From Candidatus Kaiserbacteria bacterium (GTDB lineage: Bacteria > Patescibacteriota > Minisyncoccia > Phycocordibacterales > UBA2100): a stretch of DNA of 34,823 bases. The stretch's first letter is position 1. Each line of letters opens with the position of its first letter. The position numbers and the translations under genes are program-made. The stretch lies in contig JACQKA010000061.1 in the NCBI GenBank assembly GCA_016204805.1, forward strand, positions 1-34,823, given 5' to 3'. The notes under the pieces were generated by a model. That model was not told the DNA's origin, made no database searches, and was given only the letters and a program-made list of their open reading frames with translations. This document shows positions 32,347 through 34,718 of the stretch, piece by piece.

Positions 32347-32403
32347 CGGACAGCGCCCTCACAGGCGCTGTCTTTTTAAAAGACAGTTATCAACAGGTAT
32401 CCC

Positions 32404-32438
32404 TTGACAACATAATGTCCTTTGAATAGGGTGAAAGC
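32404..32438 (+). promoter_or_regulatory. Transposase promoter, TTGACA-N17-TAGGGT-N6-ATG
   Basis: -35 32404-32409, -10 32427-32432, start codon 32439. Confidence 0.65.
32416..32423 (+). repeat. TGTCCTTT motif, candidate left-end transposase site
   Basis: Inverted copies TAAAGGACA at 34128-34136 and 34213-34221, direct copy at 34181-34189. Confidence 0.45.
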
Positions 32439-33314
32439 ATGGCAAAGGAAAACAAGTACAGCATCCGCGACCTAAAACGTGATTTCCCCACCGATGAGGC
32501 GGTGCTGGATTTCATATTCGACAGCCGCCACAGCCGTAAATGCTCCTGTGGAGGATCGTACAAGCGCATAACGAGGCGTAAACAGTACCAGTGCTCTAAG
32601 TGCCGCTACCAGATCGCCCCTACAGCAGGCACCGTCTTTCACAAGTCAGACACTCCCTTGGTGCTCTGGTTCCATGCCGTCTTTATCTTCTCCAATGCCA
32701 AGAGCGGTATTTCGGCCAAAGAGCTAGAGCGACAGCTCGGCGTCACCTACAAGTGCGCGTGGCGCATTCTCTCGCAGATCAGGAAAGCACTCGGAGAGCA
32801 GGGAGATGACAAACTCCGCGGAGATGTAGAAACGGATGCCGCGTACATTGGTGGGGTATACAAGGCGGGAAAGAATAACGAGCTTTTGAGCGTAGCCGTT
32901 TCAAAGAAAGCCCCGATCATCGCGGCCATAGAGCGTGGCGGAGAGGCGCGTGTCAAAGTGCTCCCTAATCTCACAGCCAAAGAGCAAGCAACCTTCGTGG
33001 AGAAAACAGTGAACCCCATAGGTACGCGCCTCATGACTGACAAAACAACGGCACTGGACCGTGTGGCGTGGGGCTACGAACGCCATTTTGTAGACCATTC
33101 ACGCAAGGAGTATGTCCGGGGCGACATCCACGTCAACAACGTCGAGACGTTCTGGGCGCATGTGAAGCGATCTGTGCGCGGCACGTACAAGGTGGTATCT
33201 AAGCGACACCTCCAGAGTTATCTCGATGCGTTTGTTTTCCATTACAACAATCGGCACAACGACAGCGCCCGATTTGCGGCGTTGCTTGGAATGCTATTGC
33301 GTGGCGCAAGATAG
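32439..33314 (+). CDS. IS1595-family (ISXO2-like) transposase
   Basis: N-terminal zinc ribbon CxC..CxxC, 'VETDAAYIGG', 'MTDKTTALDRV', 'VNNVETFWAHVKRSVRGTYKVVSKRHLQSYLDAFVFHYNNR'. Confidence 0.92.
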   Translation: MAKENKYSIRDLKRDFPTDEAVLDFIFDSRHSRKCSCGGSYKRITRRKQYQCSKCRYQIAPTAGTVFHKSDTPLVLWFHAVFIFSNAKSGISAKELERQLGVTYKCAWRILSQIRKALGEQGDDKLRGDVETDAAYIGGVYKAGKNNELLSVAVSKKAPIIAAIERGGEARVKVLPNLTAKEQATFVEKTVNPIGTRLMTDKTTALDRVAWGYERHFVDHSRKEYVRGDIHVNNVETFWAHVKRSVRGTYKVVSKRHLQSYLDAFVFHYNNRHNDSARFAALLGMLLRGAR

Positions 33315-33414
33315 CGAGAAAAGTTTTTCGGTTCATGGTTATCCCCAATTTTAGCATTCTTTCTCTTGTGCACCGCAATGGCAATGGGATACTAAAGGTG
33401 TGGAGGTACGTAGT

Positions 33415-33447
33415 ATGGGTATGACTTATAAATCACAAATCAAATAA
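33415..33447 (+). CDS. Candidate 10-aa leader peptide MGMTYKSQIK*
   Basis: GGAGG at 33402-33406, 8 nt before ATG; promoter-like TTGTGC-N16-GATACT at 33366-33393. Confidence 0.4.
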   Translation: MGMTYKSQIK

Positions 33448-33454
33448 GAGTACG

Positions 33455-33575
33455 CTCTCGGTTTGATTGTGAGGCGTCTAGGGAAACCTACATGCCTCCA
33501 CAGGACATTGTGGTTTGTGATGTAAAAAGTCACCAACCCTGATGCCTCACAATCAGTTCGGGAGTTTTCTTTTTT
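33455..33575 (+). ncRNA. Candidate compact structured ncRNA with intrinsic terminator
   Basis: CTCTCG/CGGGAG, GATTGTGAGGC/GCCTCACAATC (33465-33475/33544-33554), inner TAGG-GAAA-CCTA, CCACA..TGTGG and GTGA..TCAC hairpins, TTTTCTTTTTT tail. Confidence 0.65.
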
Positions 33576-33612
33576 GCAAAAAAAATAGCGTGCGCAAAAT
33601 GGGAAAGCAAAA

Positions 33613-34084
33613 AGCACCTCTTTTTTGGAGTTAGTTGCCCCCCGTTAGGTTAATGGATAAACCAGTCCGCTACTAACGTACAAATATTGGTTCGATTCCA
33701 ATACGGGGGACAACTGACTCTAAAAGGTGCTCTCTGCCTAACCTATATGACAGACCACGAGGACTGTCGTATGGGCATAATGCCCCCACCTGTCTTTACC
33801 GTCAAGTAGGGGCAACTGGATAACTTTTGTTCTTTGATTTCACTCATGGTCACCTCTAGGGAAAATTACCTTTGCGTGTCGTAGCACATTGCCAGCCACC
33901 CGATGCCACCTACGGCATCGTAAAGGTCGTTTTACTAGCACGATAATCCATACTTTCGTATGTCTTACCGTTACCGTCGTGCCGATGATGGAACGTACTG
34001 CACGGAGCAGTACGCCGATCGGTACCCGAAGACAACCGTCCGCGAACGCGTATAGGTTGATGGCTACCCCTGTGGGGTGGCCAT
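33613..34084 (+). ncRNA. Candidate larger structured RNA region containing the tRNA-like domain
   Basis: AGCACCT/AGGTGCT, GAGTTAGTTG/CAACTGACTC, GACAG/CTGTC, GGGCAT/ATGCCC, CGATGCC/GGCATCG, GTAAA/TTTAC, CATAC/GTATG, CGTACTGC/GCAGTACG, ATGGCTACCCC/GGGGTGGCCAT. Confidence 0.5.
33639..33710 (+). tRNA. tRNA or tRNA-like sequence, anticodon ACU, class I variable loop, Arg-like body
   Basis: CCCCCGT/ACGGGGG acceptor, GGTT-AATGGATA-AACC D arm, GTCCG-CTACTAA-CGTAC anticodon arm (one C.U mismatch), ATTGG-TTCGATT-CCAAT T arm. Confidence 0.65.
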
Positions 34085-34117
34085 GAGTAATATCAAAAAA
34101 CTTTTATCTCCAAACAT

Positions 34118-34165
34118 CATACCTCTCTAAAGGACATAATATTATGCGTTCAGGGGAGAGGTATG
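34118..34165. repeat. 10-bp inverted repeat around TAAAGGACATAATATTATG
   Basis: CATACCTCTC (34118-34127) / GAGAGGTATG (34156-34165). Confidence 0.7.
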
Positions 34166-34168
34166 CAG

Positions 34169-34177
34169 TTATCCACA
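34169..34177 (+). other. Single DnaA-box-like TTATCCACA
   Basis: Exact consensus match; related TTATCAACA at 32387-32395. Confidence 0.3.
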
Positions 34178-34180
34178 GGG

Positions 34181-34221
34181 TGTCCTTTACACTATTCTGT
34201 AAGACAGTAATCTAAAGGACA
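34181..34221. repeat. Inverted repeat TGTCCTTTA ... TAAAGGACA
   Basis: 9-bp arms at 34181-34189 and 34213-34221. Confidence 0.75.
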
Positions 34222-34379
34222 GAGGTTCTTTAAGGCAACATCAATGCGTGCCATTAGGCACAACTAGTACAGGGTACTCTCACAACACAATGTAAAGTAA
34301 GTGGGACCACCGAGGTAACCCACCGATTGTAAAAAATGGTACCTGAGTAGTATACGTTGATCCATTGCCAAAGTTTTTG

Positions 34380-34418
34380 AAACGCCTTGTGGGGATATAT
34401 AAACGCCACAAGGCGTTT
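34380..34418 (+). terminator. Terminator-like hairpin
   Basis: AAACGCCTTGTGG (34380-34392) / CCACAAGGCGTTT (34406-34418) followed by TC. Confidence 0.6.
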
Positions 34419-34718
34419 TCATATGGTAGAAAAATAAGGAGCCTGCGACTATATTTTTCACCACCCCGCTGCAATTTGCTTTTCCACAAAAGGCTTTCTA
34501 TTGAAAATATGGGGGTGAGATGGGTCGAGCGATGTCGTTAGCAGCAGATTTTGGAGTAGAAATGCAAAGTGCGGCTGGGGTTGCCCTCGCCCGCGCCTCG
34601 CATCTCATCAATTTCCACGAAACTCCGAGGCATATTCACGCTCATCGAACTGCATCCAATTCCACAAACCCTCTCCGCACCTGGCATCTGGGGACTTTTA
34701 TCTAAATTGTCCCTTGAA

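What the first reader, a model, noticed from the sequence alone, without database searches (positions are those of the whole stretch)
33366..34090. Undescribed-looking, multi-domain structured RNA locus with an embedded tRNA, directly downstream of an IS1595 transposase
The ~0.7 kb lacks a convincing long ORF but has at least ten strong hairpins, including CGATGCC-ACCTAC-GGCATCG (33901-33920), CGTACTGC-ACGGA-GCAGTACG (33994-34014) and ATGGCTACCCC-TGT-GGGGTGGCCAT (34060-34084). Wobbles in three independent stems (CTCTCG/CGGGAG, GAGTTAGTTG/CAACTGACTC, ATGGCTACCCC/GGGGTGGCCAT) are G.U on the plus strand and would be A.C on the minus strand, so selection on a plus-strand RNA is plausible. The 10-mer TCTAGGGAAA occurs at 33477-33486 and 33855-33864, linking the two halves. 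I did not recognise RNase P, tmRNA, SRP or 6S signatures. Large ornate RNAs such as GOLLD and ROOL are, from memory, often found near tRNAs, so this may be an analogous class.
Basis: partly seen in the sequence, partly recalled or inferred. Interest (0 to 1): 0.9.

Follow-up and report, generated by a model that had tools for sequence, protein, structure and literature searches.

The report
Transposon-borne RNA with tRNA-like domain
A jumping gene in a tiny-genome (Patescibacteria) bacterium carries, as cargo, a gene for a large and intricately folded RNA that holds an odd tRNA look-alike, and related jumping genes carry RNAs of similar architecture, which points to an undescribed kind of mobile RNA of unknown function.

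Summary
It lies inside an IS1595-type transposon, 32392-34165, with inverted ends and a perfect 8-bp target duplication (CAGTTATC). Eighteen related elements across Patescibacteria have the same ends, 0.6-2.7 kb of cargo, and insertion into a TTATCCACA (DnaA-box-like) motif (15/18 sites match at 8 or more of 9 bases; background 7/1080). Cargo is either protein (NYN nuclease, defence-like genes) or structured RNA. In several unalignable RNA cargos the 5' end has three interleaved helices, A-B-C-A'-B'-C' (window, L096, L146, and in variant form L139 and L143: 0/150 shuffles each; protein cargos: no signal), next to a tRNA-like domain. The window's tRNA-like domain is tRNA-Arg-derived, with anticodon ACU and a broken anticodon stem. 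It sits on a helix preserved by compensatory changes in two other elements. Normal chromosomal tRNA-Arg genes in the same order can also have such flanking helices. No Rfam family other than tRNA matches. Shown: transposon, cargo status, structure, recurrence. Not shown: transcription and function. Best functional guess: a tRNA-mimic RNA used in element/phage/host conflict.

The parts
32392..34165 (+). complete IS1595-type transposon (1774 bp) carrying the RNA locus as cargo
   Evidence: inverted ends plus 8-bp direct repeat; same layout in 17 related elements
32384..32391 (.). left target-site duplication CAGTTATC
   Evidence: identical to 34166-34173
34166..34173 (.). right target-site duplication CAGTTATC, first bases of the interrupted motif CAGTTATCCACAGG
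   Evidence: the uninterrupted motif is conserved in about 19 relatives at the same place
32392..32416 (+). left inverted end AACAGGTATCCCTTGACAACATAAT
   Evidence: shared with related elements
34141..34165 (-). right inverted end (reverse complement CATACCTCTCCCCTGAACGCATAAT)
   Evidence: 14 of 19 core bases match the consensus, TSD at the fixed register
32439..33314 (+). IS1595-family DDE transposase (291 aa)
   Evidence: Pfam DDE_Tnp_IS1595 E 2.4e-28, Zn_ribbon_IS1595
33366..33393 (+). weak promoter-like pair TTGTGC-16-GATACT just upstream of helix A
   Evidence: read by eye; weak here (shuffles reach the best score in 70/300) but strong at the same place in L160, L146, L143
33399..33573 (+). 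5' domain of three interleaved helices: A 33399-33413/33488-33502, B 33426-33442/33508-33524, C 33446-33478/33541-33573
   Evidence: 0/150 shuffles reach its score; duplex energies -20.8, -13.0, -41.4 kcal/mol
33613..33731 (+). tRNA-like domain on a long stem (33613-33619/33725-33731 and 33628-33637/33711-33720)
   Evidence: helix kept by both-side changes in L162 and L096
33639..33711 (+). tRNA-Arg-like cloverleaf, anticodon ACU, 29:41 C-U mismatch in the anticodon stem
   Evidence: ARAGORN, Rfam RF00005 56 bits; stem mismatch
33742..33775 (+). hairpin CCTATATGACAGACC/GGACTGTCGTATGGG
33829..34101 (+). third domain, closed by helix 33829-33856/34074-34101, enclosing the hairpins at 33901-33920, 33994-34014 and 34060-34084
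   Evidence: score 22.6 against shuffle maximum 14.2; comparable long closing helices in L096 and L160

Best explanation
The locus is the passenger of an IS1595-type cut-and-paste transposon (32392-34165) that inserted into a DnaA-box-like TTATCCACA motif in front of a conserved small-RNA promoter. The passenger is a self-contained RNA gene of about 700 nt (about 33399-34101). By analogy with its relatives, transcription starts at helix A. The 5' end has three interleaved helices (A-B-C-A'-B'-C'), then a tRNA-Arg-like domain on a long stem, then a third domain closed by a long helix. Inferred: the RNA works as a tRNA mimic that engages a tRNA-binding factor (anticodon nuclease, ArgRS, RNase P or the ribosome) in conflicts between element, phage and host, and the transposon spreads it as an advantage gene, as sister elements spread nucleases and restriction genes. 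The transposon, cargo status, helices and recurrence are shown by sequence. Transcription and the mimic function are inferred (function about 0.3).
For: Perfect 8-bp TSD and inverted ends in the window and 17 relatives. 15/18 rebuilt target sites match TTATCCACA at 8 or more of 9 bases, against 7/1080 random sites. The empty site is conserved in about 19 relatives. Fold z -9.5. Interleaved helices 0/150 shuffles in window, L096, L146, L139, L143; 1/150 in L099; 6/150 in L160; no signal in most protein-cargo elements. Strong promoters 5-7 nt before helix A in L160, L146, L143. tRNA-like extension helix with both-side changes in 3 elements. Anticodon [AG]CU with 29:41 mismatch in window, L162, L096 and three IMG/VR loci, against 0 of 34 normal tRNA-Arg(NCU) with a 28:42 or 29:41 mismatch. 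Sister cargos include NYN nucleases, a PADLOC candidate defence family and a methyltransferase.
Against: No expression data. The ABC signal is weak or absent in other structured cargos (L087, L092, L161, L162, L077), so the RNAs may not be one family. The topology was first seen by eye and tested afterwards. The three helices might be alternative conformations. An extended helix around tRNA-Arg is also found at normal chromosomal tRNA-Arg genes of the order. The window's own promoter is weak. No direct evidence for mimicry or defence.
Confidence: 0.65

Rival explanations
1. The cargo is a working tRNA gene: the hairpin precursor is processed to a tRNA-Arg with anticodon ACU that reads Ser AGU/AGC codons or resists an anticodon nuclease. 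The rest of the structured DNA is leader, trailer and unrelated sequence.
For: The cloverleaf scores well above the tRNA cut-off. Some ordinary tRNA-Arg genes in this order also lie in long flanking inverted repeats, so such precursors can evidently yield tRNA. Phage contigs carry Arg-body tRNAs with ACU/GCU anticodons. Phage tRNAs with altered anticodon loops are proposed to evade host nucleases (PMC10264068).
Against: The middle anticodon-stem pair is broken in window, L162, L096, L190, L191 and L240 but in none of 34 normal tRNA-Arg(NCU). An Arg body with an ACU anticodon would misread serine codons. It leaves the 5' and 3' structured domains unexplained.
Confidence: 0.25
2. The RNA is an ornate phage/mobile-element RNA of the GOLLD/ROOL sort, forming a homo-oligomeric cage with the tRNA-like domain as payload or linker.
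For: [quoted passage not shown]
Against: No match to GOLLD, ROOL or any other Rfam family even at E up to 5. The transposon rather than prophage context and the interleaved 5' domain were not found described for them.
Confidence: 0.15
3. The structured region regulates the transposon itself (antisense or end-proximal RNA, or DNA hairpins used in transposition).
For: It lies between the transposase and the right end in the window and in the other elements with structured cargo.
Against: Many sister elements have only protein cargo there and still have TSDs. The RNA orientation relative to the transposase is reversed in L162, and apparently in L099 and L077. DDE elements are not known to need ssDNA hairpins.
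Confidence: 0.1
4. It is degenerate DNA: a decayed tRNA copy and chance inverted repeats with no function.
For: Mismatched anticodon stem; no close homologue of the whole region in 195 related genomes.
Against: Fold z -9.5; long helices far beyond shuffles; helices preserved with changed sequence in independent elements.
Confidence: 0.1

Closest known systems
IS1595 family of insertion sequences and transposons
   Same: DDE_Tnp_IS1595 transposase, terminal inverted repeats, 8-bp direct repeats (8-bp DRs also reported for ISApl4, PMC12561309)
   Different: long cargo in every complete element, some of it structured RNA; insertion into a TTATCCACA motif instead of the generally A/T-rich sites reported for ISApl4
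GOLLD RNA / ROOL RNA
   Same: large multi-domain RNA of mobile elements with tRNA association
   Different: no Rfam covariance match; carried by a DDE transposon; a tRNA-like domain on a long helix and an interleaved 5' domain
tRNA-Arg (UCU/CCU) genes of Patescibacteria and phages
   Same: tRNA-Arg-like body; extended flanking helix also seen in some chromosomal genes
   Different: anticodon ACU; 29:41 mismatch; located inside a transposon next to other structured domains
HEARO/omega RNA and IS110 bridge RNA (transposon ncRNAs; from memory)
   Same: noncoding RNA encoded inside a transposon near the transposase gene
   Different: those RNAs guide their partner proteins and are part of the mobility machinery; here the RNA is optional cargo of a DDE element and in some elements runs in the opposite orientation
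ABCABC 'pseudotrefoil' pseudoknots (PMC3390330)
   Same: three mutually crossing helices; 51 sequences in that survey
   Different: average length 74 nt there; here about 165-175 nt with helices of up to about 30 bp

Membership tests
IS1595 transposon family | IS1595-type DDE transposase | tested here: met
   Pfam PF12762 E 2.4e-28
IS1595 transposon family | terminal inverted repeats and about 8-bp target duplication | tested here: met
IS1595 transposon family | catalysed transposition | not testable with these tools
   only one copy in the genome; conserved empty site in relatives
GOLLD / ROOL / other Rfam RNA | match to the family covariance model | tested here: not met
   only tRNA at gathering; nothing else relevant at E up to 5
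GOLLD / ROOL / other Rfam RNA | homo-oligomeric RNA cage | not testable with these tools
   needs cryo-EM
tmRNA | tmRNA structure with tag ORF | tested here: not met
   ARAGORN and Rfam find none
canonical tRNA gene | cloverleaf fold | tested here: met
   RF00005 56.1 bits, gathering 29
canonical tRNA gene | intact anticodon stem and anticodon fitting its body | tested here: not met
   29:41 mismatch, Arg-like body with ACU anticodon
canonical tRNA gene | processing and aminoacylation | not testable with these tools
   needs tRNA sequencing or a charging assay
tRNA-Arg-like cargo group (window, L162, L096) | extended helix kept by compensatory changes | tested here: met
   21 of 31 pairs of the whole domain with change on both sides, 92.5% of cells paired; three sequences only

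The most novel reading that the evidence does not exclude
Patescibacterial IS1595-type transposons that home to DnaA-box-like sites disperse an undescribed class of large RNAs, defined by a 5' interleaved three-helix (pseudotrefoil-like) domain plus a tRNA-like domain, acting as tRNA mimics in phage/host/element conflict.
Probability: 0.4. Interest if true: 0.88.

Novelty: new variant of a known kind. Interest (0 to 1): 0.72.

Why it matters
Large structured bacterial RNAs of unknown function are few, and their link to tRNAs and mobile elements is an open puzzle. A transposon group in which RNA cargo alternates with defence-like protein cargo gives natural replicates and a testable hypothesis for what such RNAs do. 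The TTATCCACA insertion preference is a separate, directly testable property of a DDE transposase.

Tried and rejected
Rfam at permissive E: only tRNA; the other hits are below-threshold chance matches. Whole-region DNA search in 195 relatives and in phages: almost only tRNA-Arg matches. Model R1 over 247 genomes: normal tRNA-Arg genes score up to about 90 bits, so R1 does not separate the cargo group by score; most of the best hits proved to be ordinary tRNA-Arg genes, several with flanking inverted repeats. L160 tRNA-like domain: only 7 bits with R1 and no Rfam hit, so tentative. First ABC score was inflated by one strong stem in controls; replaced by the sum of the two weaker helices. A MITE or repeat origin: the element is single copy in its genome. 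TCTAGGGAAA repeat: near chance. Pattern search was loose; few matches proved to be tRNAs.

Full report
Observation. The region folds far better than shuffles on both strands (z -9.5 on +, -11.4 on -). Rfam gives only tRNA.

It is transposon cargo. The transposase at 32439-33314 is IS1595-type. Relatives at 53-63% identity, found across Patescibacteria and in IMG/VR contigs, share a left end TATCCCTTGACAACATAAT about 40 bp before the start codon. A matching inverted end lies 0.6-2.7 kb downstream of the transposase. In the 12 elements first examined, one candidate right end carries an identical 8-bp word at a fixed register with the left flank. A search that requires the TSD extends this to 18 distinct elements of this clade (there the TSD is a criterion, so it is not independent evidence). 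For the window the ends are 32392 and 34165 and the TSD is CAGTTATC. The region called '33366-34090' is therefore passenger DNA.

Target site. When flank, one TSD and the other flank are joined, 15 of 18 sites contain a 9-mer matching TTATCCACA at 8 or 9 positions, usually at the same register and in either orientation; random 32-mers from the same loci reach this in 7 of 1080. In the window the hit motif is part of a promoter-like block (GTTATCCACAGGNTGTCCTTTACA...TATTCT) conserved in about 19 genomes of the family, downstream of an exonuclease III-like gene in most and convergent with a CCA-adding-enzyme gene. That is the empty site. IS1595 relatives such as ISApl4 show 8-bp but generally A/T-rich repeats.

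Cargo. Some elements carry proteins: NYN nucleases (L087, L091), a protein matching PADLOC candidate defence family PDC-S42 (L101), a long ORF that reads like type I restriction-modification (L095; my reading) and uncharacterised membrane proteins (L088, L093, L096, L139, L146). A 798-bp element without transposase carries what reads as a DNA methyltransferase gene (L185). Others carry structured noncoding DNA (window, L092, L099, L160, L161, L162, and parts of L087, L089, L096, L139, L146).

tRNA-like domain. In the window, L162 (opposite strand of its cargo) and L096, the cargo holds a tRNA-Arg-like cloverleaf with anticodon ACU, ACU and GCU, closed by a helix that continues beyond the acceptor stem. 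Across the three, 92.5% of structural cells are paired and 21 of 31 pairs change on both sides, against 7 in shuffles. The middle anticodon-stem pair (29:41) is broken in all three and also in IMG/VR loci L190, L191 and L240; none of 34 normal tRNA-Arg(NCU) in the fetched loci is broken at 28:42 or 29:41. The ACU-type pattern occurs in 1 of 244 genomes of the order, namely this one. Caution: several normal chromosomal tRNA-Arg genes in the order also sit in long flanking inverted repeats, so the extended helix by itself is not diagnostic.

Interleaved 5' domain. Reading L146, L160, L096 and the window showed three helices in the order A-B-C-A'-B'-C'. A search over all cargos, scored by the two weaker helices, gives 0/150 shuffles for window, L096, L146, L139 and L143, 1/150 for L099 (minus strand), 6/150 for L160 and 7/150 for L077 (minus). 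It gives no signal for L087, L089, L092, L161 and L162, nor for protein-cargo elements (the nearest, L101 and L148, 9/150 each). In L139 and L143 helix A is the extended acceptor stem of a tRNA-Asp-like cloverleaf, and B and C pair its D and anticodon arms with downstream sequence. Duplex energies for the window are -20.8, -13.0 and -41.4 kcal/mol. Promoter pairs lie 5-7 nt before helix A in L160, L146 and L143 (0-1/300 shuffles), moderately in L096 and L139, weakly in the window, and not in L099 or L077. The topology corresponds to the rare ABCABC 'pseudotrefoil' class. Whether the three helices coexist or alternate is not known.

Third domain. A 26-31-nt helix closes a roughly 200-300-nt domain in the window, L096 and L160, well beyond shuffles. 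In L096 and L160 it encloses a small ORF; the window has no convincing one.

Function. Nothing here tests it. A tRNA mimic in conflicts between phage, host and element fits the altered anticodon arm, the presence of ACU Arg-like tRNAs in viral contigs, the defence-like sister cargo, and the literature on phage tRNAs that evade anticodon nucleases. A working tRNA and a GOLLD/ROOL-like assembly are the main rivals.

Limits. MAG and viral contigs only; no expression data; the ABC topology was noticed before it was tested; 150 shuffles cap each p-value near 0.007; only three sequences support the tRNA-extension covariation; the cargo RNAs cannot be aligned as a whole, so 'one family' is a hypothesis.

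Noticed in passing
window 34166-34425: Conserved promoter-like block, short noncoding stretch and terminator, at the same place in about 19 genomes of the family, convergent with a CCA-adding-enzyme gene; no Rfam match. Looks like an undescribed small RNA gene whose upstream motif the transposon interrupted.
   Followed up: partly
G000 contig C68 (L002) 1-138 versus window 34290-34427: Strain variant at 97% identity with paired changes in the terminator stem.
   Followed up: partly
L164, L165, L166, L167, L168, L172: Normal chromosomal tRNA-Arg genes inside long perfect or near-perfect inverted repeats; why is unexplained.
   Followed up: no
L195, L203, L209, L210, L215, L228, L240, L270: IMG/VR contigs with short-variable-arm tRNAs carrying ACU or GCU anticodons.
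   Followed up: no
L139 3076-3211 and L143 2500-2645: tRNA-Asp-like cargo whose D and anticodon arms have strong complements just downstream.
   Followed up: partly
L160 1397-1534, L096 5818-6045, L146 3435-3614, L089 5718-5879: Small ORFs inside or next to the structured RNA cargo; the L160 and L096 products end in or contain lysine runs.
   Followed up: no
L185 1692-2489: 798-bp non-autonomous element with the same ends and an 8-bp TSD, apparently carrying a DNA methyltransferase gene.
   Followed up: no
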